Positions 371 to 45,792 of a DNA stretch of 61,012 nucleotides are shown here, in pieces. Position numbers and translations under genes: made by a program. The DNA is from Clostridia bacterium (lineage in GTDB: Bacteria > Bacillota > Clostridia > Oscillospirales > Acutalibacteraceae). Numbering within the stretch: the stretch's first letter is position 1; every line of letters begins with the position of its first letter. The notes beneath the pieces were generated by a model that saw nothing but the letters and a program-made list of their open reading frames with translations, was not told the origin of the DNA and made no database searches. The stretch covers positions 1 through 61,012 of the forward strand of contig JAFSIW010000072.1 of the NCBI GenBank assembly GCA_017439545.1. Direction: 5' to 3'.

Positions 371-1969
371 TTATGCTTTACGAGCGTAGCTGGGCAACAG
401 TTTAGGCGAAACCATGTCGCTTGCGATACCGGCATCGGCGCATTCTTTGGCAAATTTTTCTACGTGATCCAAGGAAAGCGCACCAACGGTCACGTCCTTG
501 GACTTGTTGGCGGCATTGCGACCTGCGTTGCGACCGAATACGATGATATCAAGCAGAGAGTTACCCATCAAGCGGTTGCGGCCGTGGATGCCCCCAACCG
601 CTTCCCCTGCTACAAACAGGTTTTCCACGTTGGTGGTCATGCAATCGTCGGAAATATCCAAACCGCCGTTTTGATAGTGGAGGGTGGGATAAATGAGAAT
701 AGGCTCTTTACGGATGTCAATGCCGTATTTGCCGAACATACGCATCATAGCGGGGATGCGTTTTTCAATGGTGCCTTCCCCGTTTTTCAGTTCGATCATG
801 GGAGTATCCAGCCAGATGCCTTCCCCTTCGGGAGTTTTGATGCCCTTGCCTCTGGCAGAGCATTCACGGATGATGGATGCGGCGGACACGTCACGAGTTT
901 CCAGGGGATGCATAAAGGCTTCGCCGTCTACGTTGATGAGTTTCGCACCCAAGGAACGTACCTTTTCGGTAACCAACGCACCGAAGATCTGTTCGGGATA
1001 AGCCGCCCCGGTGGGGTGGTATTGCAAGGTATCGGCATACAGCAGTTTTGCCCCTGCACGGTAACCCAACACCAGACCGTCGGCGGTAGCGCCATAGTGG
1101 TTGGAGGTGGGGAAGCCTTGATAGTGCAAGCGACCTGCACCACCGGTGGCGATGATGACGGTTTTGGCTTTGGCAATCAAAATTTCTTTTGTTTCCATAT
1201 TCATCAGCACGGCGCCTGCGGCATTGCCCTTGTCGTCCAAAATCAGTTCAATGGCGGCGGTAAAGTCTACCACGGGAATCTGACGGTTAAGCACTTCGTC
1301 CCGCAAGGTACGCATAATTTCCGCACCCGAATAGTCCTTGGCGGCGTGCATCCGTTTGCGAGAAGTACCGCCACCGTGGGTGGTAACCATGGTACCATCT
1401 TCGGTTTTGTCAAATTCCACACCCAGCTCATTGAGCCACAAAATGGCTTCGGGGGCTTCGTTGACCAATTTATATAAGAGTTCTTTTTTGGCGGCAAAGT
1501 GTCCGCCGCCGAAAGCGTCCAAAAAGTGTTGGGCAGGAGAGTCGTTGGGCTTGTCGGCGGCTTGAATGCCACCTTCCGCCATCATGGTGTTGGCGTCGCC
1601 CATCCGCAGTTTGGTGACTACCATTACGCTTGCGCCTGCATTGTCGGCTTCGATTGCGGCAGATGCCCCTGCACCGCCACCGCCGATCACCAGCACGTCG
1701 GTTTCATAGTCCACTTTAGAAAGGTCAACCTTCAACTCTTTTACACGGCTGTTTGCTTGCAGCAAGGCTGCCAATTGGGTGGGCACTTTTTCCCCTTTGT
1801 TGGGACCCACTTGCAGCACGGCAAATTCGTCTTGCTTATAGTCGGGATGATAGGTAGCAAGGAGTTGTTCCTTTTCCTCGGCGGTCATACGACGGGGCTC
1901 CAGCACCGCGTTGGCGGCTCTGGCGGCTTCTACCTTTTTCATGGATTCCAGCATTTCTTTGGTATACAT
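371..1969 (-). CDS. frdA: Soluble fumarate reductase / succinate dehydrogenase flavoprotein subunit
   Basis: A 532-residue FAD-dependent fumarate reductase flavoprotein. The dinucleotide-binding motif VLVIGGGGAGASAA starts near residue 92, and the C-terminal FAD motif GEAVGGIHGRNRLMGNSLLD and HPTG are present. The start at 1969 is chosen because AAGGAGG lies seven bases upstream; an upstream in-frame start would overlap frdB. Two oddities: about 85 extra residues precede the FAD fold, and the protein stops soon after the capping domain, without the long C-terminal helical domain of E. coli FrdA. The histidine that binds FAD covalently in membrane enzymes (motif SHT) is replaced by Asn127 (ANT), so the FAD should be non-covalent. 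No membrane-anchor gene is nearby. It follows frdB by 13 bases. L-aspartate oxidase is a related alternative but is unlikely beside an FeS subunit. Confidence 0.88.
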   Translation of the reverse strand: MYTKEMLESMKKVEAARAANAVLEPRRMTAEEKEQLLATYHPDYKQDEFAVLQVGPNKGEKVPTQLAALLQANSRVKELKVDLSKVDYETDVLVIGGGGAGASAAIEADNAGASVMVVTKLRMGDANTMMAEGGIQAADKPNDSPAQHFLDAFGGGHFAAKKELLYKLVNEAPEAILWLNELGVEFDKTEDGTMVTTHGGGTSRKRMHAAKDYSGAEIMRTLRDEVLNRQIPVVDFTAAIELILDDKGNAAGAVLMNMETKEILIAKAKTVIIATGGAGRLHYQGFPTSNHYGATADGLVLGYRAGAKLLYADTLQYHPTGAAYPEQIFGALVTEKVRSLGAKLINVDGEAFMHPLETRDVSAASIIRECSARGKGIKTPEGEGIWLDTPMIELKNGEGTIEKRIPAMMRMFGKYGIDIRKEPILIYPTLHYQNGGLDISDDCMTTNVENLFVAGEAVGGIHGRNRLMGNSLLDIIVFGRNAGRNAANKSKDVTVGALSLDHVEKFAKECADAGIASDMVSPKLLPSYARKA

Positions 1970-1982
1970 TGAAAACTCCTCC

Positions 1983-2657
1983 TTACTTCTCGATTTCGCG
2001 GGTGTTGTACAGTTCTTTGATTTCATCGATGGGCTTATTCATCAAACCTTCAATGAGTTCTTTAAAGTCACCGTTGTTGATTTCTTTGACTCGGTCTTCC
2101 AAATGAGCGGTCTTGGGAGCCAGATATTTGCCGTTGATGCGGCGGGCAAGCATAGCCACTTGAGGATGAGAGATGCCCGCAGGGCAACGGGAGGAGCAGA
2201 CACCGCACATCACGCAGTCGAAGGATTCTTCGGCGCATTTTTCAAAGTCGCCCCGTTGGGCGTAAGCGATGTATTGCATGACGTTCAGTTCTTGGGTGCA
2301 AGCCTTGGTGCAGGCGTTGCAACCGATACAACTGTAAATTTCGGGGTACAGTTGCATCATCACCGATTCGGTGACAGGTACGGTGTTGATATCGTACACT
2401 TGTTTGACCAAGGGGAAGAAAGGCAAGGTTGCCACGTACATATCGTTTTCTACCTTGGTTTGGCAAGCCAAGCAAGCGTTGAGTTGTTGTTGACCTTTAA
2501 TGCGATAAATGGTAGCACAAGCGCCGCAAAAACCGTTACGGCAACCGCAACCACGCACCAGTTCATAACCGGCATATTCCATTGCTTTCATAATGGTAAG
2601 ATTGGAGGGCACTTCATATTTTTTGCCCATCAGATATACATTGACCATTTCAGACAT
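1983..2657 (-). CDS. frdB: Fumarate reductase iron-sulfur subunit
   Basis: A 224-residue iron-sulfur protein that passes electrons to FrdA. The N-terminal half is a plant-type 2Fe-2S domain (CxxxxCxxC at Cys39, Cys44 and Cys47, fourth ligand probably Cys62). The C-terminal half has two four-cysteine motifs, CIGCNACTKAC and CVMCGVCSSRCPAG. E. coli FrdB carries a 3Fe-4S cluster at the second site. ATG at 2657 is preferred over TTG at 2663 because GGAGG is nine bases upstream of the ATG and too close to the TTG. It lacks the C-terminal CCG (HdrB-like) domain that is fused to the equivalent subunit of methanogen thiol:fumarate reductase; here an HdrB-like protein is a separate gene 6 kb upstream in the same unit. 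There is no quinone-site membrane subunit. Confidence 0.88.
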   Translation of the reverse strand: MSEMVNVYLMGKKYEVPSNLTIMKAMEYAGYELVRGCGCRNGFCGACATIYRIKGQQQLNACLACQTKVENDMYVATLPFFPLVKQVYDINTVPVTESVMMQLYPEIYSCIGCNACTKACTQELNVMQYIAYAQRGDFEKCAEESFDCVMCGVCSSRCPAGISHPQVAMLARRINGKYLAPKTAHLEDRVKEINNGDFKELIEGLMNKPIDEIKELYNTREIEK

Positions 2658-2705
2658 AATCAAATTCCTCCTATATGATAATCGTACGCTTCGTTTTTGA
2701 AAATA

Positions 2706-2865
2706 GGATGAGCAAAGTCATAAACGTCATAGGTCAAAGGGAATGATTTTTATGACATTTTCGGTGGCTGAGGATGAACAAAGGCTTTGTGCCTTTGGAA
2801 GACGAAACACCGAAAAGGGCGGAAAAGCAACCCTTTGAGCAGGACGGAGATGGCTTTGGTTATCC
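2706..2865 (-). other. Nested imperfect inverted repeat between flxA and frdB
   Basis: The 208-base gap between flxA and frdB contains four nested complementary segments: GGAT/ATCC with CAAAG/CTTTG (2706-2717 with 2854-2865), TCAAAGGG/CCCTTTGA (2734-2741 with 2831-2838), TTTTCGGTG/CACCGAAAA (2758-2766 with 2808-2816) and AAAGGC/GCCTTT (2780-2785 with 2791-2796). Together they make one long interrupted hairpin ending at the flxA stop codon. No open frame or U-run was found, so a simple terminator is unlikely. It may set the ratio of Flx-Hdr to Frd message by processing or stabilisation; a small palindromic mobile element is an alternative. Confidence 0.6.
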
Positions 2866-3696
2866 TTAATACTCGTTAGGCATCTCATCTAATTGGTCGC
2901 ATCTAAACACCGGACCGTCTTTACAGACGTATTTCGCACCGATGTTGCAACGACCGCATTTGCCCACGCCGCATTTCATTTTCAATTCCATGGTGGTGTA
3001 GACTTGGGTCTTATCAAAGCCCAGTTCAATCAGACCCGCCAAGGTGAATTTGATCATAATGGGAGGTCCGCAAATGATAACGGTTTTGTTGGTATCAAAG
3101 CCCAACTCTTTTACGTAGTTGGGAACGAAGCCTACGTGACCGTCCCATCCTTCTTGCTCACGGTCGATGGTCAGGTACACGTTGATGCCTTCTTCTTTGC
3201 ACCATTCGTCGATGATCTCTTTGTAGTCCACCAGATCGTCCATACTACGGGAGCCGTATACGATATCCACCGTGCCGTAGTCGGCGCGGTTATCCCGCAC
3301 GTAGTTGATGACCGACCGCAAGGGAGCCAGACCGATACCACCTGCCACAAACACCAGATCTTTGCCTTTGAATTCGGTGTCCACGGGGAATCCGTTGCCG
3401 TAAGGTCCGCGGATGGTGATTTGTTGACCCACTTCCATTTGATGAAGCCAGTTTGTGAGGCAACCGCATTTTTTGATGGAAAATTCCATAAATTCGGTGT
3501 TGGTGGGAGAGGAGGTGATGGAGAACATGGCCTCCCCTACGCCGGGGATAGACAGCATAGCGCATTGACCGGGCATATGGTCAAATACCTTGCCCCCGTC
3601 CAAAGCGTTGACTCGGAAGGTCTTTACGTCGGGGGTGTCGATGCGCACGTCGGTTACCACACCGAGTTTCGGAATCAAGGTTTCTTGTACGTTCAT
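2866..3696 (-). CDS. flxA: FlxA-type NAD(P)H:acceptor oxidoreductase (FAD, 2Fe-2S)
   Basis: A 276-residue flavoprotein of the ferredoxin-NADP reductase fold, related to AsrB, PyrK and the Flx flavin oxidoreductases. It is the likely NADH entry point of the Flx-Hdr complex. The FAD half is N-terminal, with GPYGNGFP closing it. The NAD half starts with LVFVAGGIGLAPLRSV near residue 165 and contains IICGPPIM. A C-terminal cysteine cluster (CGVGKCGRC followed by a distal Cys) fits the PyrK/AsrB 2Fe-2S site. It overlaps the previous gene by four bases (ATGA). This gene order, AsrB-like, AsrA-like, dicluster protein, MvhD-like and HdrABC, matches the FlxABCD-HdrABC loci described in sulfate reducers and clostridia. 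Confidence 0.85.
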   Translation of the reverse strand: MNVQETLIPKLGVVTDVRIDTPDVKTFRVNALDGGKVFDHMPGQCAMLSIPGVGEAMFSITSSPTNTEFMEFSIKKCGCLTNWLHQMEVGQQITIRGPYGNGFPVDTEFKGKDLVFVAGGIGLAPLRSVINYVRDNRADYGTVDIVYGSRSMDDLVDYKEIIDEWCKEEGINVYLTIDREQEGWDGHVGFVPNYVKELGFDTNKTVIICGPPIMIKFTLAGLIELGFDKTQVYTTMELKMKCGVGKCGRCNIGAKYVCKDGPVFRCDQLDEMPNEY

Positions 3697-4715
3697 TCGT
3701 TGGCACCTCCCAATGCTTTAATCACTTTTACAATATTCATAGAGATGGGGCATTTGGCAAGGCATCTGCCGCAACCCACGCAAGAGAAGTCGCCGTTGTT
3801 GTTGGCGGGGAAATACACCAGCTTGTGCATAAACCGTTGACGGAACCGTTCCACTTGAGAAAGACGGGGGTTACCGTGGGCACAACGGGTGAATTCGGAG
3901 TACATACAAGAGTCCCAGCAACGGAAGCGTTGAATGCCGTGTCCCGTATCAAAGTCCTTAATATCGTAACATTGACAAGTGGGGCACACAAAGGTACAAG
4001 TGCCGCAACCAAGGCAGGCTTCAGACAGTTTTTTCCATTGCTCACTGCCGAACAGATTCAGCAGATTGTCTTCGGTAAAGGCGGACAGATCCAGATTTTG
4101 GATAGGCAGTTTTGCCATGATTGCCTTTACGGTTTCTTTTACGCCGTCGGCGGCGGAGTCGTCCGCTTCTGCCAGTACGTCGGCCGCGCTTTGGAGCAAG
4201 GCTTCCCCTGCTTCGGTGTTGGCTTGCAGATACAGGGTGTCTGCATCCTGCCAGCAAGCCACGTCACCGCCGGGGGCGGTGGGGTCAATGCCGAAGTTTG
4301 TGCAGAAGCAGGTTTCGGCAGGCTTGTTGCAGCACACGGTAACGATCACGCCGTGTTCACGGCGGTTCTTATAATAGGTATCTACGGGATCGCACAGAAA
4401 GACCTTATCCAGCAGTTCAAAACTGCGAGCATCACAAGCCCGCACCCCGAACACCACGAAATCTTCGTCGGGACGGATGGGTTCGATGATCTCAATGGTC
4501 TTGCCTTCCACCTTAAAGTCCATCATATTTTCGGTTTGGGGGAAGAAAAAGTCCTTGGCCGAGCGGTTGGTGTTTAACGCGCCGCTCCACAGCACACCGT
4601 CTTCATACTTTTTAAAGTCAGCACCTGCGGGGGTATCCACCGGCAGGTACAAAGTACGGGTGGCGGACAAAGCCTTAAACAAAGACTGAATGGAATCGAG
4701 TTTGATTTGCTTCAT
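3693..4715 (-). CDS. flxB: FlxB-type AsrA-like iron-sulfur subunit
   Basis: A 340-residue protein like anaerobic sulfite reductase subunit A and the FlxB subunit, which carries electrons between FlxA and the Hdr part. The first 220 residues form the AsrA-type domain of undefined fold, with scattered cysteines (VCCNKP, CFCTNFG). The C-terminal third has two ferredoxin motifs, CLGCGTCTFVCPTCQC and CVGCGRCLAKCPISM, each able to bind a 4Fe-4S cluster. The start codon lies just after the flxC stop, and the end overlaps flxA by four bases, indicating tight translational coupling. Sulfite reduction itself is unlikely because no AsrC/sirohaem subunit is present. Confidence 0.82.
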   Translation of the reverse strand: MKQIKLDSIQSLFKALSATRTLYLPVDTPAGADFKKYEDGVLWSGALNTNRSAKDFFFPQTENMMDFKVEGKTIEIIEPIRPDEDFVVFGVRACDARSFELLDKVFLCDPVDTYYKNRREHGVIVTVCCNKPAETCFCTNFGIDPTAPGGDVACWQDADTLYLQANTEAGEALLQSAADVLAEADDSAADGVKETVKAIMAKLPIQNLDLSAFTEDNLLNLFGSEQWKKLSEACLGCGTCTFVCPTCQCYDIKDFDTGHGIQRFRCWDSCMYSEFTRCAHGNPRLSQVERFRQRFMHKLVYFPANNNGDFSCVGCGRCLAKCPISMNIVKVIKALGGANE

Positions 4716-4716
4716 C

Positions 4717-5685
4717 TTATTCCACCCCTCTTTCGTGAACGATAGACGGCTCGCAATCGTCGTAAGTAAAGTTGGTCAGAGGACCTTTGGAGTCGGTATC
4801 TTCCCCTGCTTGATATTCCCCATACAACTCGTTAATGTCTTTAATAAACTTGCGGTTGAGAAGGTGCAACGGAATGCCTTGGGGGCAAACACGGGAGCAC
4901 TCACCACAGTCGGTGCATCGGCCTGCCACGTGGAAGGCACGAATCACATGGAACATTTTTTCTTCAAAACTGTCTGCGGCGGCGGTGTTGGCAATACCGG
5001 AATTCACATTGTCAAACACGCATTTTTCACAGGTGCAGGCAGGGCACACGTTGCGGCAGGCGTTGCAACGGATGCAACGGGACAGCTCATTCTGCCAGAA
5101 GGCAAACCGTTCATCGGCGGTCATATTTTCCAATTTTTCCACCATATCAAAGCGGTTGGAGTTGATCACTTCGCCGTCTTCGCCCAAAATTTCGTCATAG
5201 GTCATCAGCTTGCGGCTTTTGCAAACCACGCAACGTTCGGCAAGCACGTCAGTCTTGGCAACGGTTTGGTTACCGTACAGGGTTTCCACCACAAAGTTGT
5301 CACCCTCGGCTTTGATTCCCAAAATGCCGTCAATGCCCAATGCCTTGATTTTTTCCACGTCAGCCTTGCCCTCGCAACCGATGCCCACCACGTACACCTT
5401 GTCACGGTTGACACGGTGTTCTTTGGTGAGTTGGTTTAAGCTGTAAGTATCGCAAGGCTTTAAGAAGGCGAGGATCTTGCCTTCCTGTTTGGTTTCTTTT
5501 ACCAGATATTTGGACAGATTGGCGGCGGTAAAATCGTCATACACAAACTGTTCCAGTTGGTCGGCAGAGTCGAACACAGCGGGAGTATGGTCATAAGCGA
5601 ACTCCCCTTTTTGCCAACCCAGCACACGGTTTACGGTGCCGTCGGCAAGCAGTTCTTTGGCTCTTCTCATCATTGCTTCTTGCAT
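4717..5685 (-). CDS. flxC: FlxC-type 4Fe-4S dicluster electron-transfer protein
   Basis: A 322-residue cytoplasmic iron-sulfur protein with an N-terminal domain resembling FrhB-like or hydrogenase-associated proteins (AFLKPCDTYSLNQL, VVGIGCEGK, CVVCKSRKL). Its C-terminal dicluster ferredoxin region contains CIRCNACRNVCPACTC and CTDCGECSRVCPQGIP. I chose the start at 5685 because GGAGG is seven bases upstream; the longer frame adds 34 residues that overlap flxD almost completely and do not look conserved. It overlaps flxD by 16 bases and ends one base before the flxB start. Assignment of the C letter follows gene order; the exact correspondence to the published FlxC should be confirmed by alignment. 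Confidence 0.78.
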   Translation of the reverse strand: MQEAMMRRAKELLADGTVNRVLGWQKGEFAYDHTPAVFDSADQLEQFVYDDFTAANLSKYLVKETKQEGKILAFLKPCDTYSLNQLTKEHRVNRDKVYVVGIGCEGKADVEKIKALGIDGILGIKAEGDNFVVETLYGNQTVAKTDVLAERCVVCKSRKLMTYDEILGEDGEVINSNRFDMVEKLENMTADERFAFWQNELSRCIRCNACRNVCPACTCEKCVFDNVNSGIANTAAADSFEEKMFHVIRAFHVAGRCTDCGECSRVCPQGIPLHLLNRKFIKDINELYGEYQAGEDTDSKGPLTNFTYDDCEPSIVHERGVE

Positions 5686-6113
5686 CGTAAATCCTCCAAT
5701 CGTTTGTTTTCGCCCAGTTTGGTTACTGCTTCCACAAATTCGTTCATGGTTTTGGCAAACTTGGCGCCTTCCGCGGCAGACACCCATTCCAGACGGGTGC
5801 GATCCCGCTCAATGCCTAAGAAGTCCAGCATACTGAACAGCAAGGTCATACGGCGACGGGCGTAATAGTTGCCGGTGGTATAGTGGCAGTCGCCGGGGTG
5901 GCAACCGCAGATGATCACACCGTCAGCCCCCCGTTGGAATGCCCGCAACACGAACATGGGGTTTACACGGCAAGAGCAGGGCACGCGGATGATCTTTACG
6001 TTGGCGGGGTAGTTCAGTCGGTTGGTACCCGACAGGTCAGCCCCTGCATAAGAACACCAGTTGCAGCAAAAGGCAACAATGGTGGGTTTGAATTCTTTTT
6101 TCTCTACTTGCAT
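5670..6113 (-). CDS. flxD: FlxD / MvhD-family 2Fe-2S electron adaptor
   Basis: A 147-residue MvhD-type protein. In methanogen and Flx complexes this subunit docks on HdrA and relays electrons from the hydrogenase or flavin oxidoreductase module. The typical motifs are all present: AFCCNWCSYAGAD near the N-terminus, VPCSCRVNP, and GCHPGDCHY followed by ARRR. The length is normal for the family. It overlaps the hdrA end by ten bases and the flxC start by 16 bases. Its position between hdrA and flxC is a strong sign that the Flx and Hdr modules form one complex. Confidence 0.92.
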   Translation of the reverse strand: MQVEKKEFKPTIVAFCCNWCSYAGADLSGTNRLNYPANVKIIRVPCSCRVNPMFVLRAFQRGADGVIICGCHPGDCHYTTGNYYARRRMTLLFSMLDFLGIERDRTRLEWVSAAEGAKFAKTMNEFVEAVTKLGENKRLEDLRCKKQ

Positions 6114-8107
6114 ATTGCGTCAACCTCCGCCATAATCTGGCTGTTGGAAAATCCGTTCAAGTCCATCGCACCCGAGGGGCAAGCCACGGTACAAGCGCCG
6201 CAACCTTGGCACACCGCAGGGTTGACACTCGCCACACGGCGAATGGCGGTGGTACGGTCGGGCATACGGAATTCTTTGTCTTGATAGGTGATAGCGCCGT
6301 AGGGACAAACCTTTTCGCAAGCCGAACATCCGTTACACATCAGTTCATCCGAATGGGCAACGCAGGGGTTGCAGGTAAGGCTGTCTTTTACCAGCAAACC
6401 GATGACCTTTGCGGCGGCACCCGATGCTTGGGATACGGTTTCGGGAATGTCCTTAGGTCCTTGACAGCAACCCGACAGGAACACGCCTGCGGTGGGGCTT
6501 TCTACGGGACGGAGCTTGGGATGGGCTTCGGTGAAGAAGTCGTTGGTATCCATACTGGCGGTGAGCATGGTAGCCAAAGGACGGGCGGATTGATCCGGCT
6601 CGATGGCGGCGGCCAGCACCACCATATCGGCTTTGATCTTCAGTTGTTCCCCTTCGATCAGGTCAGAGGCTTGCACCAGCAAACTGCCGTCGGCTTGGGG
6701 AGCAACCTTGCCCACCATACCCTTGATGTATTTCACGCCGTATTCTTCTACGGCACGGCGATAGAATTCGTCAAAGTTTTTCCCCGGTGTACGCACGTCA
6801 ATGTAGAACACGTACACTTCGGTGTCGGGATATTTTTCACGGCACAGCATGGCGTGCTTGGCGGTATACATACAGCAGATCTTGGAGCAATAAGATTTGC
6901 CTTTTTCTGCCCCGTCGCAACGAGAGCCGACACATTGCACAAACACCAGCGTGTGGGGATGCTTGCCGTCGGAGGGACGAAGCAGAGTGCCTGCGGTAGG
7001 ACCTGCGGCGTTGGTCAACCGTTCAAATTCCAAGGAGGTGACCACGTCGGGAGATTGGTTATAGGCAAATTCGTCAAACTGATCCAGATTGATGGGATTG
7101 TAACCGGTGGCTACCACGATAGCGCCGTATTTTTCTTCAATAAAGGAATCCTGTTGGGTGTAGTCGATGGCGCCCGCTTCGCAAACGGTGGCGCACAATC
7201 CGCATTTGCCGGTTTTCATTTTCAAGCAGGCGGTGGGATCAATGGTGGCCACCTTGGGCACTGCCTGAGCAAAGGGAATGTAAATGGCAGAGCGTTTATC
7301 CATACCCAAGTTGAATTCGTTGGGCACTTTTTTCATGGGGCATTTTTCTACGCACAGACCGCAACCGGTACATTTTACGGGGTCAACCATACGGGCTTTT
7401 TGCTTGATCTTCACCGAGAAGTTGCCCACGAAGCCTTTGACCTCGGCAACCTCGCTGTAAGCGTAGATGTTGATTTTATCGTGTTGGGCGGCATCCACCA
7501 TTTTGGGGGTGAGAATACAAGCGGCACAGTCCAGCGTGGGGAAGGTTTTGTCGATTTGCGCCATTTTACCGCCGATGGTGGGCTTGGTTTCCACAATATC
7601 CACGGGGAAGCCTGCGTCGGCAATATCCAAAGCGGTTTGAATGCCTGCGATACCGCCGCCGATGACCAGTGCTCGTTTCACAACGGGGCTTTCGCCAGCA
7701 ACCAGCGGAGCATTGAGATGCACCTTGGCGATGGCGGCACGGCCTAAGATAATGGCCTTTTCGGTACCTACTTCCATATCCTTATGGATCCAAGAGCATT
7801 GTTCACGAATATTGGCAATTTCAACCATATAGGGGTTGAGGCCTGCGGCCGCCGCCGTTTTACGGAAGGTAGCCTCGTGCATACGGGGAGAGCAAGAGCA
7901 CACCACGATGCCGGTGAGCTTATGGTCACGAATAGCATCTTTGATCAGGGTCTGCCCTGCCTCGGAGCACATATATTGATATTGGGTGGCAATGACGACG
8001 CCGGGTTCGGATTTTAAGGCTTCGGCAACCTTATGTACGTCTACCGTGCCGGCGATGTTAGAACCACACCAACATACGAATACACCGATTCTTTGCAATT
8101 TGTTCAC
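6104..8107 (-). CDS. hdrA: HdrA, FAD-containing electron-bifurcating subunit
   Basis: A 667-residue HdrA. In known complexes its FAD splits an electron pair between a high-potential acceptor (through HdrB) and ferredoxin. The order is an N-terminal domain (residues 1-140, with VFVCWCGSNIAG and CSCSPRMHE), a thioredoxin-reductase-like FAD domain opening with ALVIGGGIAGIQTALD near 145, the HdrA-specific LDCAACILTPKM segment using Cys and not selenocysteine, an inserted ferredoxin (CTGCGLCVEKCPMK), and two C-terminal clusters (CNGCSACEKVCPYG and CQGCGACTVACPSG). The GTG at 8107 sits almost on top of its AGGA, so TTG at 8098 (LQRIGVF, closer to the usual HdrA start) is an alternative. It lies eight bases after hdrC. 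Confidence 0.93.
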   Translation of the reverse strand: MNKLQRIGVFVCWCGSNIAGTVDVHKVAEALKSEPGVVIATQYQYMCSEAGQTLIKDAIRDHKLTGIVVCSCSPRMHEATFRKTAAAAGLNPYMVEIANIREQCSWIHKDMEVGTEKAIILGRAAIAKVHLNAPLVAGESPVVKRALVIGGGIAGIQTALDIADAGFPVDIVETKPTIGGKMAQIDKTFPTLDCAACILTPKMVDAAQHDKINIYAYSEVAEVKGFVGNFSVKIKQKARMVDPVKCTGCGLCVEKCPMKKVPNEFNLGMDKRSAIYIPFAQAVPKVATIDPTACLKMKTGKCGLCATVCEAGAIDYTQQDSFIEEKYGAIVVATGYNPINLDQFDEFAYNQSPDVVTSLEFERLTNAAGPTAGTLLRPSDGKHPHTLVFVQCVGSRCDGAEKGKSYCSKICCMYTAKHAMLCREKYPDTEVYVFYIDVRTPGKNFDEFYRRAVEEYGVKYIKGMVGKVAPQADGSLLVQASDLIEGEQLKIKADMVVLAAAIEPDQSARPLATMLTASMDTNDFFTEAHPKLRPVESPTAGVFLSGCCQGPKDIPETVSQASGAAAKVIGLLVKDSLTCNPCVAHSDELMCNGCSACEKVCPYGAITYQDKEFRMPDRTTAIRRVASVNPAVCQGCGACTVACPSGAMDLNGFSNSQIMAEVDAICK

Positions 8108-8115
8108 ATCCTATC

Positions 8116-8508
8116 TTACTTACTGTACTTACGGAAAGCACTGACAATGGCTTGCCCCGGAAGCTTGTCGTTCAGCTTGGCGGGAACGTCTTCGGCCTTC
8201 AAATGATTTTTGCCTTGCTGACGGATCAGCGCCAGACGGGCGGCTTCAATAAAGGAAGCAGGCTCTACCCCGCGGGGGCAACGTTCTACACAGGCAAAGC
8301 AGGAAAGGCACATCCAGATAGATTTAGAGTTCATCAACTCTTCAATTTTGCCTGCTTCTACCATAGATACGAATTGATGAGGATGATATTCCATTTCATC
8401 ATAAGCGGGGCAGGTGGCGGAGCATTTGCCGCATTTCATACATTTGCGAGGATTGACCCCTGCGGTCTCAATCACGATCTCACGCAAGGTTTCTTTGTTG
8501 TGACTCAT
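8116..8508 (-). CDS. hdrC: HdrC, 4Fe-4S electron-transfer subunit
   Basis: A 130-residue HdrC, which wires HdrA to HdrB. Two ferredoxin motifs are complete: CMKCGKCSATCPAY near residue 23 and CLSCFACVERCPRG near residue 67. Its length is at the short end of the family. Its ATGA start overlaps the hdrB stop, and hdrA follows after eight bases, so the three hdr genes are translationally coupled in the order B, C, A. Confidence 0.92.
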   Translation of the reverse strand: MSHNKETLREIVIETAGVNPRKCMKCGKCSATCPAYDEMEYHPHQFVSMVEAGKIEELMNSKSIWMCLSCFACVERCPRGVEPASFIEAARLALIRQQGKNHLKAEDVPAKLNDKLPGQAIVSAFRKYSK

Positions 8509-9299
8509 TGTGCATCCTCCTCTACGCCCAATGCTCTGGCAAGCAGTTGGGTGAAATAGTACACCGGCAGGTTATTCTCCGTGGTGTTGGCATCCAGATT
8601 ATACATACACAGCGGACAAGCGGTGATGATGGCATCGGCGCCCATTTCGGTGGCAGAGGTGCAAATGGTGTTGCACTTTTGGGTGGCGTACTCGTTATTT
8701 TCCATGGCTACGTAGCCGCCGCAGCATTCGTTACGGTAAGGGTACACCACGGGAGTCGCCCCGATAGCCTTGATGAAATCCTCCATAATGGTGGGGTTTT
8801 CAGGATCGTCAAAAGACATGGCCTTGGAGGGACGAAGCAGCAAGCAGCCATAATAGGCGGCAATCTTCATATCCTTCAAGGGGTTGACCACCGCTTTTTT
8901 CAGATTGTCGAATCCCACACGGTCACGAAGCATTTCTAAATAATGGATCACCGTGGTCTCGCCGGTATAGGGAACGTCCAACGCCATATAGTTGTTGGCT
9001 TTCAGTTGCACGTTTTGGTCGTTTGCCATATCATTGTTGACCCGCTTGATTACGTGGTGGCAAGCCGAGCACAGGGTAAGCAGATCCTGCCCCTTGTCAC
9101 GGGCGGCAACCAAGGCGCGCACCGACGACAGTTTGGTGGCAATTTCGTTTTTGGCCATGGGATACACCGCGCCGCAACATTGCCAATCTTCTAATTCTTC
9201 CATGGTAACACCCAAGACCTCGGCGGATTTTACGGCATAGGTTTCCAAATCCTTGCCCTTGGCCTTAAGGGTGCACCCGGGATAATAACTAAAGGTCAT
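8505..9299 (-). CDS. hdrB: HdrB, CCG-domain non-cubane cluster subunit
   Basis: A 264-residue HdrB with two CCG domains. In methanogens this subunit reduces the CoM-CoB heterodisulfide using two unusual non-cubane 4Fe-4S clusters. The ligand sets look intact: Cys9, CCG at 41-43 and CSAC at 77-80 in the first half; AYYGC, NECCGG and CPLC in the second. A strong GGAGG precedes the ATG. The organism is not obviously a methanogen or sulfate reducer, so the disulfide substrate is unknown. In this operon the terminal acceptor could be FrdB-FrdA directly, or a small dithiol protein encoded elsewhere. It follows fumC by 19 bases. Confidence 0.92.
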   Translation of the reverse strand: MTFSYYPGCTLKAKGKDLETYAVKSAEVLGVTMEELEDWQCCGAVYPMAKNEIATKLSSVRALVAARDKGQDLLTLCSACHHVIKRVNNDMANDQNVQLKANNYMALDVPYTGETTVIHYLEMLRDRVGFDNLKKAVVNPLKDMKIAAYYGCLLLRPSKAMSFDDPENPTIMEDFIKAIGATPVVYPYRNECCGGYVAMENNEYATQKCNTICTSATEMGADAIITACPLCMYNLDANTTENNLPVYYFTQLLARALGVEEDAQ

Positions 9300-9318
9300 A
9301 TTCCCATTTCCTCCTTCG

Positions 9319-10695
9319 TTAGATCATTTGTTCGGGATGGAACACTTCGTCGAATTTTTCTTCGGTCAAGAAGCCGAGGGCTACGCAGGCTTCTTTCAGC
9401 GAAATGTTTTCTTTATACGCCTTTTTGGCGGTTTTGGCGGCGTTTTCGTATCCGATATAGGGATTTAGCGCCGTGACCAGCATCAGCGAGTTGTGCAGGT
9501 TGTGGTGCATTTTTTCTTTGTTGGCTTTGATGCCTACCGCGCAGTTGTTGTTGAAGGACACGATGCAGTCTGCAAGCAAGCGAACCGATTGCAGGAAGTT
9601 GTAAATGCACACCGGCATAAACACGTTCAGTTCAAAGTTGCCTTGAGAAGCGGCCATACCAACCGCCACGTCGTTGCCCATTACCTGTACGGCAACCATA
9701 GTAACCGCTTCGCATTGGGTGGGGTTGACCTTGCCGGGCATAATGGAAGAACCGGGTTCGTTTTCGGGAATGAAGATCTCGCCCAGACCGTCACGAGGAC
9801 CGGAAGCCAGCCACCGCACGTCGTTGGCGATCTTCATCATATCGGCGGCCAAGGCTTTGAGAGCACCGTGGGCAAATACCAATTCGTCTTTGGAAGTGAG
9901 AGCGTGGAATTTATTGTCGGCGGTGACAAATTCCTTGCCGGTGATCTCGCTCACCGCTTTGGCAACGGCAACGTCAAAGCCCTTGGGGGTATTGAGCCCC
10001 GTACCAACGGCAGTACCGCCCAAAGCCAATTCTTTTAAAGTGGGCAGGGCGATTTGAAGCATTTTCTTGTCTTTTTCCAAAGAGGAGCGCCAACCGCTGA
10101 TTTCTTGGCTGAAAGAAATGGGGGTAGCATCCTGCAAATGGGTACGACCGGATTTGACAATGCCTTCATTTTCTTGTTCCAACCGTTTAAAGGTGTCAAC
10201 CAGCAGGTCGATGGCGGGGAACAGTTTATCTTCCATGCCCAACACCGCGGCAATGTGCATGGCGGTGGGGAAAGTATCGTTGGAGGATTGGCTCATATTG
10301 ATGTCATCGTTGGGATGCAGCAGTTTTTCTCCTGCGATCTCGTTGCCACGGTTGGCGATGACTTCGTTGGCGTTCATATTGGATTGGGTACCCGAGCCGG
10401 TTTGCCATACCACCAGCGGGAAGTGGTCGTTCAGTTCCCCTGCCATCACCTCATCGCAGGCCTTGCTGATGGCGGCAAGTTTGGCGTCGGTCATTTTTTC
10501 GGGCTTCAAAGCGTGGTTTGCCATGGCGGCGGCTTTTTTCAGAATCCCGAAAGCATGGGTGATCTCACGGGGCATTACCTCGTTGCCCACACCAATGCGG
10601 AAATTTTCACTGCTCCGTTGGGTTTGTGCCGCCCAATACTTGTCGGCAGGTACTTTTACCTCGCCCATAGAGTCATGTTCAATACGATATTCCAT
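9319..10695 (-). CDS. fumC: Class II fumarate hydratase
   Basis: A 458-residue iron-independent fumarase interconverting malate and fumarate. The superfamily signature [16 protein letters not shown] is at about residues 314-329, and the class II fumarase active-site segments [11 protein letters not shown] and [19 protein letters not shown] are intact. Length and start ([16 protein letters not shown]) are typical. It sits between malate dehydrogenase (112 bases upstream) and hdrB (19 bases downstream), so the encoded steps run oxaloacetate to malate to fumarate to succinate. Aspartase is a family alternative, but the [10 protein letters not shown] and GxxxPxxxN pattern and length fit fumarase. 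Confidence 0.95.
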
Positions 10696-10807
10696 TCTGT
10701 TGTCTCCTCGATTCTACAGATTTAGTTATGGTTTCATAATGTCCTATTACGCAGGTCAAGCGGAGTACCCCGTTTGGGATAATCCGCAAGTTCCCGAAAG
10801 TATGCAA

Positions 10808-11755
10808 TTAAATATCCAGCTGGGCAATGATCTCTTTGAGGCAGCCGGCGGATTTTTGCAGCAAGGCTTCTTCTTCGGGGGTGAGAGGAATCAGCACCTT
10901 GCCGGTCACCCCGTCTTGCCCCACAATGCTGAGCACCGACAGGCAAACATCGTCAATGCCGTATTCGCCGTGCATCATGCTGGAAACGGTGAGGGTGGTG
11001 TCAATGCCGCTTAAAATGCAACGGCAGATATGGCAAACCGAAATGGCAACGGCATAAAAGGTTGCCCCTTTGCGTTCAATAATACGACCGCCGGATTTGC
11101 GCATATAATTTTCGATCTGTTCGTGGTCCAAGGGAGGGAAAGGTCCTTTGGTACCGTCGTTAATAAAGGCTTGAAAATCGTCGATGGGAATGTTGGAAAT
11201 ATTTGCCACCGACCAGGGAACAAAGGAAGAATCGCCGTGTTCACCGAACACGTAAGCGTGCACGTTTTGTTGATTCAGGCTGTAATATTCCGAAATGCGG
11301 GAACGCAGACGGGCAGTGTCCAGAATCGTACCCGAACCGATGATCTGACTTTCTTTCAGACCCGAGCATTTGTGGAATACGTAGGTGAGGATATCCACCG
11401 GATTGCTGACGATGATGTATTTGGCATCGGGAGCGTATTTGGTGATCTCGGGAATAATGGATTTGGTGATGTTCACGTTGGTTTGGGCCAAGTCCAAACG
11501 GGATTGACCGGGTTTACGGGCAATACCCGAGGTCAGCACCACAATGTCGGAATCTTTGGCATCCCGATAACTGCCGGCGTACACCGAAACGGGAGGGCAA
11601 AAGGGGGTGCCTTGGCGGATATCCAACGCTTCGCCCAAGGATTTGGCTTCGTTCACGTCGATCATCACGATCTCGGATGCGATGCCGCACACCGCCATGG
11701 TGTAAGCAATGGTAGAGCCAACGCTGCCACTGCCGATGATGGTAATTTTGCTCAT
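10808..11755 (-). CDS. mdh: LDH-fold malate dehydrogenase (NAD-dependent)
   Basis: A 315-residue NAD-dependent 2-hydroxyacid dehydrogenase of the lactate/malate family. Visible are the glycine motif IIGSGSVGSTIAY, catalytic His in GEHGDSS and the substrate-binding Arg in ILDTARLR. The specificity loop reads GIARKPGQSRLDL: the position that is Gln in lactate dehydrogenases (VNQKPG) is Arg here, as in malate dehydrogenases. Together with fumC downstream this favours oxaloacetate reduction. The overall sequence is closer to lactate dehydrogenase, so an activity test would be needed to exclude pyruvate. The start at 11755 gives the standard N-terminus MSKITIIGSG; the longer frame adds 41 unlikely residues. 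It is the first gene of the operon. Confidence 0.82.
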   Translation of the reverse strand: MSKITIIGSGSVGSTIAYTMAVCGIASEIVMIDVNEAKSLGEALDIRQGTPFCPPVSVYAGSYRDAKDSDIVVLTSGIARKPGQSRLDLAQTNVNITKSIIPEITKYAPDAKYIIVSNPVDILTYVFHKCSGLKESQIIGSGTILDTARLRSRISEYYSLNQQNVHAYVFGEHGDSSFVPWSVANISNIPIDDFQAFINDGTKGPFPPLDHEQIENYMRKSGGRIIERKGATFYAVAISVCHICRCILSGIDTTLTVSSMMHGEYGIDDVCLSVLSIVGQDGVTGKVLIPLTPEEEALLQKSAGCLKEIIAQLDI

Positions 11756-12194: not shown

Positions 12195-12223
12195 ATTATA
12201 GCATATATACATATTGATTTCAA
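12195..12223 (-). promoter_or_regulatory. Sigma-A promoter of the succinate operon
   Basis: On the minus strand TTGAAA (12218-12223) is followed after exactly 17 bases by TATAAT (12195-12200). It lies in the gap between the LysR gene and mdh, pointing towards mdh. Transcription would start near 12188. Confidence 0.75.
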
Positions 12224-12255: not shown

Positions 12256-13188
12256 TCAACCCTGTCCAAAGGCAACTTGATTCTTGGTAATAAACAGCAC
12301 GTCGGCAAATTCCCGATCTAAGGGGGACAGGGTGTAGTCCTTGGGATAGACCAACACATCCCGAAAGGTGTTGTTCTCTCTTTGGCATTTGCGCTGTACC
12401 AAACCGTAACGGGACAGCACCTCGGCGGGCACGGGAGGCGCCCACATATAGGAGTCGGTCACGTTGGACAGCATATTATACTGACTGCTCCGCTCCTGCA
12501 CGTGAATGCGGCGGCGGGCGTGAGGGGTCTCTTTTTGCCCTTGAAACTCCTCAATCTGCAGGTAGGGCACCGCAATTTCTTCATAGCAGATCTCAATATA
12601 ATCCCCCAGTGCCTCGTAGGTGATCTCCCCCTGCGCCAAGGGGTGATCTTTGGACATCAGCACGGGATATTCGTACTCCCAGATCAGTTGTCCCACCAAA
12701 TCTTTTTCTTTGAAATAAGCCTGATAGTAGTGGTCGTAATGGCTGGGAATACGCACGATACCAAGGTTAAATTCCCCGTTTGCCACACTGTGCACCGTGT
12801 CCATAGAGCTACTTTCGTTCACGTGGATATCCATCTCTTTTTCGCCTCCCAAGCCTTTCACAAAATTGGTGATGGCGTGAGAAATATAGCTGCCCGCCGG
12901 CACGCAGATGCTAAAGCGATGACCGTCCTCGCTTTGGTGATGTTGCAGGCGCTCCATCCGATCCAATTGGGCGAGGATCCGTTTGGCGTACACCAAAAAC
13001 TGCTCCCCTTTTTCGGTGGGTGCCACCCCCTTGGAGGTGCGGCGAAACACGGTGATACCAAGGGTTTCTTCCAGTTCTTTAATGGCTTTGGAAAGGTTTG
13101 GTTGCGCCATATACAGATTCTCTGCCGCCTGGGTGATCGAGCCGGTTTTTGCCACCTCTACTGCATATTTAAAGTGTAAGGTATTCAT
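12256..13188 (-). CDS. LysR-family transcriptional regulator
   Basis: A 310-residue LysR-type regulator. The N-terminal winged helix-turn-helix is clear (KTGSITQAAENLYMAQPNLS, then LFRRTSKG-like VFRRTSKGVAPTEKG), followed by the linker helix and a substrate-binding effector domain from about residue 90. It is transcribed in the same direction as the succinate operon and its stop lies about 30 bases upstream of that operon's promoter; its own consensus promoter faces the Rnf operon promoter across about 95 bases. It could control either operon. The effector is not predictable, though a C4-dicarboxylate would suit the context. Confidence 0.9.
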   Translation of the reverse strand: MNTLHFKYAVEVAKTGSITQAAENLYMAQPNLSKAIKELEETLGITVFRRTSKGVAPTEKGEQFLVYAKRILAQLDRMERLQHHQSEDGHRFSICVPAGSYISHAITNFVKGLGGEKEMDIHVNESSSMDTVHSVANGEFNLGIVRIPSHYDHYYQAYFKEKDLVGQLIWEYEYPVLMSKDHPLAQGEITYEALGDYIEICYEEIAVPYLQIEEFQGQKETPHARRRIHVQERSSQYNMLSNVTDSYMWAPPVPAEVLSRYGLVQRKCQRENNTFRDVLVYPKDYTLSPLDREFADVLFITKNQVAFGQG

Positions 13189-13412: not shown

Positions 13413-13443
13413 GTAAGAGATTATGATGGAGGGGAGTTTTTTT

Positions 13444-13815: not shown

Positions 13816-13825
13816 AGGAGACGTT

Positions 13826-14357: not shown

Positions 14358-15707
14358 ATGGCAAAACCCCTTCCCTCTTCGGTGTTGTGCAAGCCGGTTT
14401 GCCGCGCCAGAGGCGGCGTGCATCCGCCTCACAACAAGTTTACCGCCCAGTCGGCTACCCAAACCCTTCCCCTGCCCGCTGCCGTGACCATCCCCTTGGC
14501 ACAGCACATCGGCGCGCCCTGCCTGCCCGTGGTCTCCGTCGGTCAGCAGGTGTTTGTGGGCACGTTGCTTGCCGACCGTACCGATGCTCTTTGCGCTCCC
14601 ATTCACAGCAGTGTTTCGGGCACCGTCAAGGCCATCGGCCCTATGATCTGCGCAGGCGGTCGTCTGGCAGACGGCGTTACCATTGAGACCGACGGAAATC
14701 AGACCCCCGATCCCGATTTACAGCCCTTCCCCGTTTCCTCTGCCGAGGATCTGGTAGCCGCCGCCCGCGCCTGCGGGCTGGTGGGACTGGGGGGAGCAGG
14801 CTTTCCTACCCATATCAAGCTACGCCCCTCTCCCGAACAGCCCATTGATACCATTCTGATCAATGCCGCCGAGTGCGAACCGCACATTACGTCGGACGAT
14901 CGGGCTTGCTTAGAGGACACCCCGCTGATCGTGCGGGGGATGCATACTCTGCTTGCCGCCTTGCAACCCAAGCAGGTGATCGTAGGCATTGAAAACAATA
15001 AACCGAAGGCCATTGAAGCCTTGGTTCGTGAGATTGAAGGCAATCCCGATGCCGAAAATTGGCTGAGAGTTATGCCCCTGCCCTCTCACTACCCCCACGG
15101 GGCGGAAAAAATTCTGGTGCAGGTGGCAACCGGTCGCAGAGTGCCCGCAGGCAAGATTCCTTCTTTTGTGGGATGTTCGGTGCTCAACGTTTCCAGTCTT
15201 GCGGTGTTGCAAAACTTTATTGAAACGGGAATGCCTCTGACCCATCGCCGCATCACGGTAGACGGTCCTGCGGTCATCAACCCTCAAAACCTGCTGGCGC
15301 CCATCGGCACCGCCATTCAGGAGTTATTGGATTTTGTGGGGGTACACGAACCCCCCGCCAAGGTACTCAGCGGCGGCCCTATGATGGGCAGTGCCTTGTT
15401 GAATACCGCTATGCCCGTGGTCAAGCAAACCAACGCCGTTCTGGCCTTTGACAAGAAAAACGATCTGTCTGACCGCCATCAAGCCCCCTGTATCCGATGC
15501 GGTCGATGCGCCACCGCTTGTCCCATGTCGCTGATGCCCACCCTCATTGAGCGGTACGCTAAGATCAACGATATTGAGAATCTCCGTCGGGTAGGGGTGG
15601 GAGTTTGTATGGAGTGCGGCAGTTGCGCCTACTCCTGTCCCGCTCACCGACCGTTGGTGCAATATATGCGGCTGGCAAAAGAAATTGAACGAAAGGGGCG
15701 TACCTGA
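14358..15707 (+). CDS. rnfC: Rnf complex subunit C (NADH/FMN and 4Fe-4S)
   Basis: A 449-residue peripheral subunit of the ferredoxin:NAD+ oxidoreductase that carries the NAD site. GLVGLGGAGFPTHIKL near residue 140 is the FMN/NAD-binding signature shared with NuoF. A central SLBB-type domain follows, and two 4Fe-4S motifs lie near the C-terminus (CIRCGRCATACPMS and CMECGSCAYSCPAH). The length is typical. The stop overlaps the rnfD start (TGATGG). Confidence 0.95.
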   Translation: MAKPLPSSVLCKPVCRARGGVHPPHNKFTAQSATQTLPLPAAVTIPLAQHIGAPCLPVVSVGQQVFVGTLLADRTDALCAPIHSSVSGTVKAIGPMICAGGRLADGVTIETDGNQTPDPDLQPFPVSSAEDLVAAARACGLVGLGGAGFPTHIKLRPSPEQPIDTILINAAECEPHITSDDRACLEDTPLIVRGMHTLLAALQPKQVIVGIENNKPKAIEALVREIEGNPDAENWLRVMPLPSHYPHGAEKILVQVATGRRVPAGKIPSFVGCSVLNVSSLAVLQNFIETGMPLTHRRITVDGPAVINPQNLLAPIGTAIQELLDFVGVHEPPAKVLSGGPMMGSALLNTAMPVVKQTNAVLAFDKKNDLSDRHQAPCIRCGRCATACPMSLMPTLIERYAKINDIENLRRVGVGVCMECGSCAYSCPAHRPLVQYMRLAKEIERKGRT

Positions 15708-16690: not shown

Positions 16691-17217
16691 AACGGTTAAA
16701 ACCTTTACTGATTCCCACCCTTTCCCTGTTTCTCATTGGGGTGGTAGTAACCGCCGCTTTGAGCGTGACCAATTCCTTCACCAAAGACCGCATTGCCGCG
16801 CAAGAAGAACAGGCTATTGCCGATTCGATGAATCAGCTGTTCCCCGACGCCGCCTTTGATTGCGTGGGCGGCGAAATGGACAGCGACCTTCTGCACTATA
16901 TTGCCACTGCCGACGGAAAGACTGTGGGACACATCATTCGCACCGCCGCCATGGGCTACAAAAGCAAGGTAGAAGTGCTGGTTTCCTTTGATTTACAACA
17001 ATCCGTTTCCGGTGTAGTGGTTACCAACTGTGCCGACGAGAGCCCCGGTATCGGGCAAAAGGTTGGCACCGACCAAGCCTTTTTGAACCAATACAAAGGG
17101 TATCAACAAGGGGATACGGTGGACGCCATTACCGGCGCTACCTATTCGTCGGACGCGGTCACCGAAGCGGTCAATCAGGCGGTTGCCTATATGCAACAAG
17201 GAGGTGGGGGTCAGTGA
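16687..17217 (+). CDS. rnfG: Rnf complex subunit G (covalent FMN)
   Basis: A 176-residue subunit with one N-terminal transmembrane helix and an extracytoplasmic FMN-binding domain. The flavinylation motif DAITGATYSSDAV lies near residue 140; its Thr is the expected attachment site. The stop overlaps the GTG start of rnfE. Length is normal for clostridial RnfG. Confidence 0.95.
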   Translation: MKRLKPLLIPTLSLFLIGVVVTAALSVTNSFTKDRIAAQEEQAIADSMNQLFPDAAFDCVGGEMDSDLLHYIATADGKTVGHIIRTAAMGYKSKVEVLVSFDLQQSVSGVVVTNCADESPGIGQKVGTDQAFLNQYKGYQQGDTVDAITGATYSSDAVTEAVNQAVAYMQQGGGGQ

Positions 17218-18481: not shown

Positions 18482-18485
18482 TACT

Positions 18486-44755: not shown

Positions 44756-44771
44756 TGTGATTCCTCCTATA

Positions 44772-44803
44772 TTGACAAATCATTGCTTTGCTATTATTAT
44801 AAT
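44772..44803. promoter_or_regulatory. Overlapping divergent promoter region, giant gene / AraC-1
   Basis: On the plus strand TTGACA (44772-44777) and TATTAT (44795-44800) have 17-base spacing and point to the AraC gene. On the minus strand a TATAAT (44796-44801) without a good -35 box points to the giant gene, as expected for an activator-dependent promoter. The whole gap is 108 bases. Confidence 0.6.
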
Positions 44804-45770: not shown

Positions 45771-45792
45771 TTATGAATGGATGATCAATGGT

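What the first reader, a model, noticed from the sequence alone, without database searches (positions are those of the whole stretch)
371..11755. Flx-Hdr electron-bifurcating complex built into a fumarate-reduction operon
Ten genes (mdh, fumC, hdrB, hdrC, hdrA, flxD, flxC, flxB, flxA, frdB-frdA) run in one direction, mostly with overlaps or short gaps. FlxABCD-HdrABC is known to oxidise NADH and split electrons between ferredoxin and a disulfide acceptor. Here the acceptor genes next to it are a fumarate reductase pair. I infer: 2 NADH + fumarate + oxidised ferredoxin gives succinate and reduced ferredoxin. That would be a soluble energy-coupling route for succinate formation, which I do not know as an established system.
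Basis: partly seen in the sequence, partly recalled or inferred. Interest (0 to 1): 0.88.

Follow-up and report, generated by a model that had tools for sequence, protein, structure and literature searches.

The report
Bifurcating NADH-fumarate reductase operon
A gut bacterium carries one operon that joins an electron-splitting NADH enzyme to a soluble fumarate reductase, so that making succinate could also charge ferredoxin for energy gain; the idea is already in print for another bacterium, and here its genes prove to be tightly tied together across many gut species but remain biochemically untested.

Summary
The operon is real: mdh/ldh-like, fumC, hdrBCA, flxDCBA, frdBA on the minus strand (eleven genes, not ten), with the expected catalytic and cluster residues. 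The idea is not new: the 'succinate operon' of Pseudoclostridium thermosuccinogenes has this order and was proposed to couple fumarate reduction to ferredoxin (PMC7282089). My survey adds evidence. Among 80 kept loci, mostly gut Clostridia, hdrBCA-flxDCBA-frdBA is complete in 55 of 57 with enough flank. In 29 distant genomes of the phylum frdBA lies with hdr genes in 16, in several orders. HdrB of this type (210 bits or more) occurs in 21 of 30 genomes with this FrdB and 0 of 269 without and forms one clade (100/98), also where frdBA lies elsewhere. So HdrB looks like the fumarate-reductase-facing subunit. No DsrC, other CCG protein or SDH/QFR C-terminal domain was found in the genome, which is 87% complete. 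Most likely: 2 NADH + fumarate + oxidised ferredoxin give succinate + reduced ferredoxin, which may feed the Rnf encoded next door. No biochemistry, expression or structure was available. New member of a known, unproven kind.

The parts
371..1969 (-). frdA: soluble fumarate reductase flavoprotein with a conserved N-terminal extension of about 90 aa, Asn in place of the FAD-binding His, and no SDH/FRD C-terminal domain
1983..2657 (-). frdB: iron-sulfur subunit, one 2Fe-2S and two CxxCxxCxxxC motifs, no CCG domain
2866..3696 (-). flxA: FAD/NAD(P)H-binding reductase
3693..4715 (-). flxB: sulfhydrogenase-beta/AsrA-like iron-sulfur protein
4717..5697 (-). flxC: 4Fe-4S dicluster protein (open frame runs to 5787)
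5670..6113 (-). flxD: MvhD/FlpD-type subunit
6104..8107 (-). hdrA: candidate bifurcating FAD / iron-sulfur subunit, aligned end to end with solved HdrA (5odc_A)
8116..8508 (-). hdrC: short form (130 aa), two 4Fe-4S
8505..9299 (-). hdrB: two CCG domains, all ten cluster cysteines; member of the FrdBA-associated HdrB clade; only CCG protein found in the genome
9319..10695 (-). fumC: class II fumarate hydratase (over curated cut-off)
10808..11755 (-). LDH-family dehydrogenase, probably malate dehydrogenase
12195..12223 (-). promoter-like site (11 of 12, TG before the -10) upstream of the operon; consensus match only
12256..13188 (-). LysR-type regulator (below the cut-off of each named family), possible operon regulator
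14358..19280 (+). rnfCDGEAB: ferredoxin:NAD+ ion pump, likely user of the reduced ferredoxin (RnfG below its model cut-off, 83.6 against 102 bits)
   Evidence: adjacency also in G002 (L172, L240) of the same genus

Best explanation
The operon encodes a soluble NADH-dependent, electron-bifurcating fumarate reductase. NADH reduces FlxA; electrons pass through FlxB, FlxC and FlxD to the FAD of HdrA, which splits them. One goes to ferredoxin. The other goes through HdrC and HdrB into FrdB and to the (probably non-covalently held) FAD of FrdA, which reduces fumarate. Twice round gives 2 NADH + fumarate + oxidised ferredoxin -> 2 NAD+ + succinate + reduced ferredoxin. FumC and the malate dehydrogenase-like enzyme supply fumarate from oxaloacetate. 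Reduced ferredoxin can drive the Rnf pump encoded about 2.6 kb upstream and so ATP synthesis. Shown: genes, residues, conserved gene order, an HdrB clade found, in the genomes searched, only with this FrdB. Inferred: electron path, bifurcation, direct HdrB-FrdB contact, stoichiometry.
For: Complete parts. FlxA and FrdB occur in exactly the same 8 of 40 relatives, own genome counted. In the phylum draw, frdBA lies with hdr genes in 16 of 29 distant genomes: 5 with full flx-hdr, 8 with other HdrA arrangements, 3 with hdrCB only; the flx-hdr label needs 4 changes on the FrdBA tree, 3 forced. HdrB at 210 bits or more: 21 of 30 FrdB genomes, 0 of 269 others (Fisher 1.5e-25, genomes not independent); one clade 100/98. 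In five of these genomes no hdr lies near frdBA (G049, G129, G223, G248, G273). No DsrC, no other CCG protein, no Succ_DH_flav_C found in the genome. The TfrB model, a single fused chain, matches FrdB 14-89, HdrC 20-98 and HdrB 188-256 at successive places, all weakly (27-38 bits; FlxC also matches its middle at 23 bits). Energetics with recalled standard potentials: -33 to -49 kJ/mol.
Against: No biochemistry, transcript, complex or structure. HdrB keeps all ten cluster cysteines (27 of 27 of this type, 15 of 15 others), so it may still reduce a disulfide. 13 of 29 distant frdBA loci have no hdr/flx in the stretch; two of these have a cytochrome b561-type neighbour by Pfam (L168, L169) and a third (L167) a protein with a like start: the FrdBA family as such does not need Flx-Hdr. 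Three FrdB genomes (G106, G109, G334) show no partner. The 208-bp spacer in the window could let frdBA be expressed apart. The genome is 87% complete, so absences are soft. In the Riftia symbiont tfrAB did not follow the expression of the rest of its cluster (passage). In relative G001 the flxA match holds two stops.
Confidence: 0.66

Rival explanations
1. Thiol shuttle: Flx-Hdr bifurcates NADH electrons to ferredoxin and to a small disulfide at HdrB; the dithiol then donates to the fumarate reductase, as CoM/CoB thiols do for methanogen Tfr. Overall stoichiometry is the same, the coupling diffusible.
For: HdrB keeps all ten cluster cysteines; the best-scoring named FrdA model is TfrA (343.6 bits).
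Against: FrdB has no CCG domain, the part where Tfr is held to oxidise thiols (recalled), and HdrB is the only CCG protein found in the genome. DsrC was not found.
Confidence: 0.12
2. Flx-Hdr and FrdBA share an operon only for redox balance. HdrB has its own disulfide substrate, and FrdBA takes electrons from another carrier.
For: FrdBA occurs without nearby hdr in 13 of 29 distant loci, some with a cytochrome b561-type neighbour. FlxA-like proteins are common without FrdB (103 of the 269 genomes without it).
Against: The HdrB clade tracks FrdB even when unlinked. No alternative HdrB partner is visible.
Confidence: 0.12
3. The complex works but does not bifurcate: a plain soluble NADH:fumarate reductase.
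For: NADH to fumarate alone is strongly downhill (-68 kJ/mol).
Against: HdrA aligns end to end with solved HdrA (5odc_A, 688 bits), from a bifurcating complex (recalled); a plain reductase would not need HdrA and FlxBCD (inference).
Confidence: 0.06
4. It runs backwards: succinate plus reduced ferredoxin drive formation of NADH (confurcation).
For: Related frdBA loci occur with genes that look, by eye, like succinyl-CoA synthetase or 2-oxoacid:ferredoxin oxidoreductase (L145, L148, L154, L156), so the direction may vary among lineages.
Against: Asn replaces the flavin-linking His in 97 of 97 FrdA; in E. coli the covalent link is needed for succinate oxidation but not fumarate reduction (recalled). 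FumC and the MDH-like gene fit the reductive branch.
Confidence: 0.04

Closest known systems
'Succinate operon' of Pseudoclostridium thermosuccinogenes (PMC7282089; preprint Koendjbiharie and van Kranenburg 2019, title seen only in its reference list)
   Same: Fumarate hydratase, seven Flx-Hdr locus tags, then two fumarate reductase locus tags in the same order; ferredoxin-linked fumarate reduction proposed there (passages).
   Different: Thermophile, with a candidate succinate transporter at the end; here an LDH-family dehydrogenase leads and Rnf lies next door. Sequences not compared.
FlxABCD-HdrABC of Desulfovibrio vulgaris (Ramos et al. 2015; recalled and via citations, not read)
   Same: Same seven subunits.
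   Different: There linked with ethanol metabolism and, as recalled, a DsrC-type partner. Here linked with frdBA; HdrB/HdrC of a distinct short type (compared with Flx-Hdr of this phylum only); no DsrC found.
Tfr, thiol:fumarate reductase of methanogens
   Same: TfrA is the best-scoring named model for FrdA; the TfrB model matches FrdB, HdrC and HdrB in succession, weakly.
   Different: TfrB is one fused chain; scores are far below cut-offs (343.6 against 718; 37 against 385).
tfrAB-flx-hdr-kor rTCA cluster of tubeworm symbionts (PMC6315080, PMC11636981)
   Same: Fumarate reductase genes interspersed with flx-hdr; direct transfer suggested, or by way of ferredoxin and a DsrC-like protein.
   Different: Autotrophic carbon fixation, Gammaproteobacteria, kor genes inside; tfrAB did not follow the expression of the cluster.
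8-methylmenaquinol:fumarate reductase (SdhABE/MfrABE)
   Same: HdrB matches the SdhE model about as well as the HdrB model (146 against 147 bits): precedent for a CCG subunit on a fumarate reductase.
   Different: Membrane and quinol-linked (recalled); below cut-off (500).

Membership tests
FlxABCD-HdrABC | all seven subunits in one operon | tested here: met
FlxABCD-HdrABC | HdrB with two five-cysteine CCG motifs | tested here: met
   ten cysteines, 27 of 27 of this type
FlxABCD-HdrABC | FlxA with FAD and NAD-binding domains and an Fe-S motif | tested here: met
FlxABCD-HdrABC | NADH-driven ferredoxin reduction by bifurcation | not testable with these tools
   needs purified enzyme
Fumarate reductase (FrdA family) | fumarate-binding and proton-transfer residues (His232, Glu245, Arg287, His355, Arg390 of E. 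coli, numbering recalled) | tested here: met
   identical in 97 of 97
Canonical membrane QFR/SDH | covalent FAD His, Succ_DH_flav_C domain, membrane anchor genes | tested here: not met
   Asn in 97 of 97; no PF02910 match in the genome; no anchor gene in the operon
Tfr thiol:fumarate reductase | TfrA/TfrB model cut-offs and fused CCG domain | tested here: not met
   343.6 against 718 and 37.2 against 385 bits; FrdB lacks CCG
SdhE/MfrE-type anchor | NF042965 cut-off | tested here: not met
   146.2 against 500 bits
P. thermosuccinogenes-type succinate operon | order fumarate hydratase, Flx-Hdr, fumarate reductase | tested here: met
   order as printed in PMC7282089; sequences not compared

The most novel reading that the evidence does not exclude
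HdrB here is no disulfide reductase. Its CCG clusters serve as a wired relay docked to FrdB, so that FlxABCD-HdrABC-FrdBA is one soluble nine-subunit NADH:ferredoxin:fumarate oxidoreductase. It would be one of a family in which an FrdBA core with an FrdBA-specific HdrBC pair is plugged into different donor modules (Flx-HdrA, larger HdrA forms, or, with other adaptors, cytochrome b).
Probability: 0.45. Interest if true: 0.75.

Novelty: new member of a known kind. Interest (0 to 1): 0.56.

Why it matters
If true, many gut Clostridia make succinate through a soluble reductase that also yields reduced ferredoxin for Rnf, hydrogenases or biosynthesis, which would change ATP and hydrogen budgets assigned to rumen and gut succinate formers. 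It would also give Hdr-type bifurcation a non-thiol acceptor. The HdrB clade gives a sequence marker and a specific interface to test.

Tried and rejected
A chance neighbourhood was rejected: order complete in 55 of 57 loci with room. DsrC as acceptor: not found in the own genome. A second fumarate reductase: the other strong FAD_binding_2 hit is nadB between nadA and nadC (named by eye from the translations); two 645- and 675-aa flavoproteins on C80 score about 79 bits. The claim that Rnf adjacency is general was rejected: seen in the window and G002 (same genus); not found in the 14-20 kb upstream stretches taken from G011, G034 and G007, nor in those from G044 and G095. ATP-dependent PEPCK was not found; a PYC/OADA protein was; GTP-PEPCK was not tested.

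A first HdrB tree showed one exception, L154. It came from a stretch that stopped just short: G319 has a 44%-identical HdrB at C3:79077-79868, which joins the clade, while the copy first taken falls outside. Long-branch rows are placed unsurely (L165 and L166, L206). L146 was left out of the FrdBA tree (contig too short) and L040 out of the first HdrB tree (no hdrB hit). The non-Frd HdrB rows were chosen by me (13 genomes; 21 rows, two of them repeats) from many; the 0 of 269 count does not depend on that choice. The Frd-type rows were picked by likeness to the window's HdrB, so the clade is partly by construction; its absence from genomes without FrdB is not.

Searches for print: within open-licence PMC only. 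They found the P. thermosuccinogenes and tubeworm proposals, but no biochemical proof and no report of this operon in gut Oscillospirales; most of the listed papers were not opened. Papers seen as passages only: PMC7282089, PMC6315080, PMC5861303 (matches in its reference list only), PMC12773636, PMC4149029, PMC11636981, PMC13014828, PMC12918512; the rest as listings. The 2019 preprint and Ramos 2015 were not read.
Full report
WHAT IS THERE. On the minus strand, window 371-11878 holds, in order of transcription, an LDH-family dehydrogenase, fumC, hdrB, hdrC, hdrA, flxD, flxC, flxB, flxA, frdB and frdA, with family matches for all but fumC, which is. The finding says ten genes but lists eleven. 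Gaps are mostly overlaps or under 20 bp; mdh-fumC is 112 bp and flxA-frdB 208 bp. In 80 related loci the flxA-frdB gap is 10-70 bp in 78 and 248 and 302 bp in two, so the long spacer is unusual. It occurs once in the genome and holds no minus-strand terminator-like site in the scan. The best promoter-like site for the operon is at 12223-12195 (a consensus match only). A LysR gene lies upstream.

PROTEINS. FrdA (532 aa from the likely start) aligns with E. coli FrdA, SdhA and L-aspartate oxidase. The residues that match His232, Glu245, Arg287, His355 and Arg390 of E. coli FrdA (numbers recalled) are identical in 97 of 97 FrdA sequences, 28 of them from the distant genomes; Asn stands at the flavin-linking His in all 97. 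FrdB has the four usual 2Fe-2S cysteines and two CxxCxxCxxxC motifs, all conserved in 116 of 116, and no CCG domain. HdrA aligns end to end with HdrA of 5odc (688 bits). HdrB has two CCG stretches with all ten cysteines. FlxA aligns with the gamma subunit of sulfhydrogenase 1. The first gene is LDH-family by model, with Arg at the site where malate dehydrogenases of this family have Arg (recalled), as has its best match 1y6j.

GENOME CONTEXT. The own genome (1.88 Mb, 87% complete) gave no DsrC, no CCG match outside this HdrB and no Succ_DH_flav_C domain. The other strong FAD_binding_2 protein looks like NadB, between NadA- and NadC-like genes. An rnfCDGEAB set (14358-19280, plus strand; RnfG below its model cut-off) and an F1Fo ATP synthase lie beside the operon (a and c subunits read by eye). 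G002, of the same genus, also has Rnf next to its operon. The stretches of 14-20 kb upstream in G011, G034 and G007 gave no Rnf match, so this adjacency is local.

CONSERVATION NEAR BY. flxA and frdB are both present in 80 of 80, and of 57 loci with enough flank 55 have hdrBCA-flxDCBA-frdBA complete and in order; for the other two the script gave no frdA coordinate, although one search shows a frdA match in both. fumC lies upstream in 55 of 57, an mdh-like match in 40 of 57. Among 40 relatives (own genome counted) FrdB of this type (E below 1e-70) and FlxA (E below 1e-45) occur in the same 8; as the genes are linked this is expected, but no genome of this set has such a FlxA without FrdB. In one of the eight, G001, the flxA match holds two stops and FrdB is split over two contigs.

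CONSERVATION FAR OFF. In 299 genomes drawn from the phylum, 30 (own counted) have this FrdB. Stretches round the 29 others show 5 with full flx-hdr, 3 with hdrC-hdrB only, 8 with other HdrA arrangements and flxD but no flxA (hdrC and hdrB seen in 7 of the 8; L158 is cut by a contig end), and 13 with no hdr or flx in the stretch. Stretches are 3.8-20 kb. Orders differ: frdBA-hdrBCA-flxDCBA in L144, L147, L149 and L150; hdrCBA-flxDCBA-frdBA in L160; hdrBCA-flxDCBA-frdBA in the window's group. On the FrdBA tree the flx-hdr label needs 4 changes, 3 of them forced by supported branches. Of the 13 without hdr near, L168 and L169 have a downstream iron-sulfur protein with a cytochrome b561 domain (Pfam), L167 one with a like start, and L145 and L166 an upstream iron-sulfur protein with a hydrophobic tail (read by eye): other donors may serve this reductase.

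AN HDRB OF ITS OWN. I searched the window's HdrB in the same 299 genomes. The 20 best non-self hits (216-291 bits, 42-52% identity) are all in genomes that have FrdB; the next (202 bits) is not. So 21 of 30 FrdB genomes and 0 of 269 others reach 210 bits (Fisher 1.5e-25; genomes are related, so the figure is not a true probability). The cut at 210 was set after seeing the list. The nine without it are G072, G078, G113 and G118 (cytochrome- or membrane-type neighbours), G168 and G292 (contig ends at the hdr genes), and G106, G109 and G334 (no partner seen). Five of the 21 have no hdr within the stretch fetched round frdBA (G049, G129, G223, G248, G273). In the tree these HdrBs, with L031 and L174, form one clade (100/98; 100% of bootstrap trees); second HdrB copies of G083, G161 and G319, and the best copy of G072, fall with those of genomes without FrdB. 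HdrC beside this HdrB measures 130-164 aa stop to stop, against 178-228 aa beside the other type (L154, with the other type, 210). Conserved differences include Ser78 (Ala in the other type) and Val83 (Arg) near the first cluster. This ties HdrB to FrdBA independently of gene order, and is the strongest evidence here that HdrB, not a free thiol, faces the fumarate reductase. FlxA-like proteins (E below 1e-45) are in 29 of the 30 FrdB genomes and 103 of the other 269 (test), a looser link.

MECHANISM. The likely path is NADH - FlxA - FlxBCD - HdrA, where electrons split to ferredoxin and, by way of HdrC and HdrB, to FrdB and FrdA. With recalled standard potentials the net reaction is -49 kJ/mol (ferredoxin at -420 mV) or -33 kJ/mol (-500 mV). 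A direct HdrB-FrdB contact has precedents: the TfrB model matches FrdB, HdrC and HdrB at successive places (weakly; FlxC matches its middle too), and HdrB matches the SdhE model about as well as the HdrB model. Loss of the flavin-linking His fits a one-way fumarate reductase (recalled from E. coli mutants). Not shown: any activity, complex or transcript.

WHAT IS KNOWN. PMC7282089 (passages) describes in P. thermosuccinogenes a succinate operon of fumarate hydratase, Flx-Hdr and fumarate reductase in this order, raised about 4-fold under CO2 limitation (not significant for all subunits), and assumes fumarate reduction linked to ferredoxin 'as proposed previously', citing Ramos 2015 and a 2019 preprint. 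PMC6315080 and PMC11636981 (passages) suggest direct transfer from Flx-Hdr to tfrAB in tubeworm symbionts, or a route by ferredoxin and a DsrC-like protein; there tfrAB did not follow the expression of the cluster. My searches found no biochemical proof and no account of the gut Oscillospirales operons.

Noticed in passing
24118-26328 (-): A 736-aa ATP synthase subunit with an N-terminal hydrophobic (b-like) segment, an OSCP/delta domain and a full alpha subunit in one chain; beta and gamma follow, a- and c-like genes precede, read by eye.
   Followed up: partly
2658-2865 (-): A 208-bp spacer between flxA and frdB, where 78 of 80 relatives have 10-70 bp; single copy in the genome.
   Followed up: partly
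L145:10378-10857, L166:9034-9516, L167:4848-5855, L168:7027-8013, L169:6953-7942: Iron-sulfur proteins with hydrophobic tails (L145, L166) or cytochrome b561 domains (L168, L169 by Pfam; L167 by likeness) beside the same FrdBA family: perhaps quinol-linked versions.
   Followed up: partly
L156:4629-7805; L154:11922-16391: Very large HdrA-like proteins (1058 and 1489 aa) near frdBA in loci that lack flxA.
   Followed up: no
13423-14353 (+): A NusG_II protein and a heptaprenyl diphosphate synthase component I-like protein precede rnfC.
   Followed up: no
39542-57159 (-): Three very large proteins: two with Metallophos and LamG domains (one with a dockerin), one GH116 with CBM6 and a dockerin.
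   Followed up: no
L178:877-2814, L179:799-2826: Two adjacent, distinct 645- and 675-aa FAD_binding_2 flavoproteins of unknown role in the own genome (Pfam of the first).
   Followed up: no
L090: The operon appears in a MAG labelled Treponema, inside the Clostridia clade: transfer or a mislabelled bin.
   Followed up: no
G001 (same genus): flxA match with two stops inside, and FrdB split over two contigs: assembly fault or decay.
   Followed up: no
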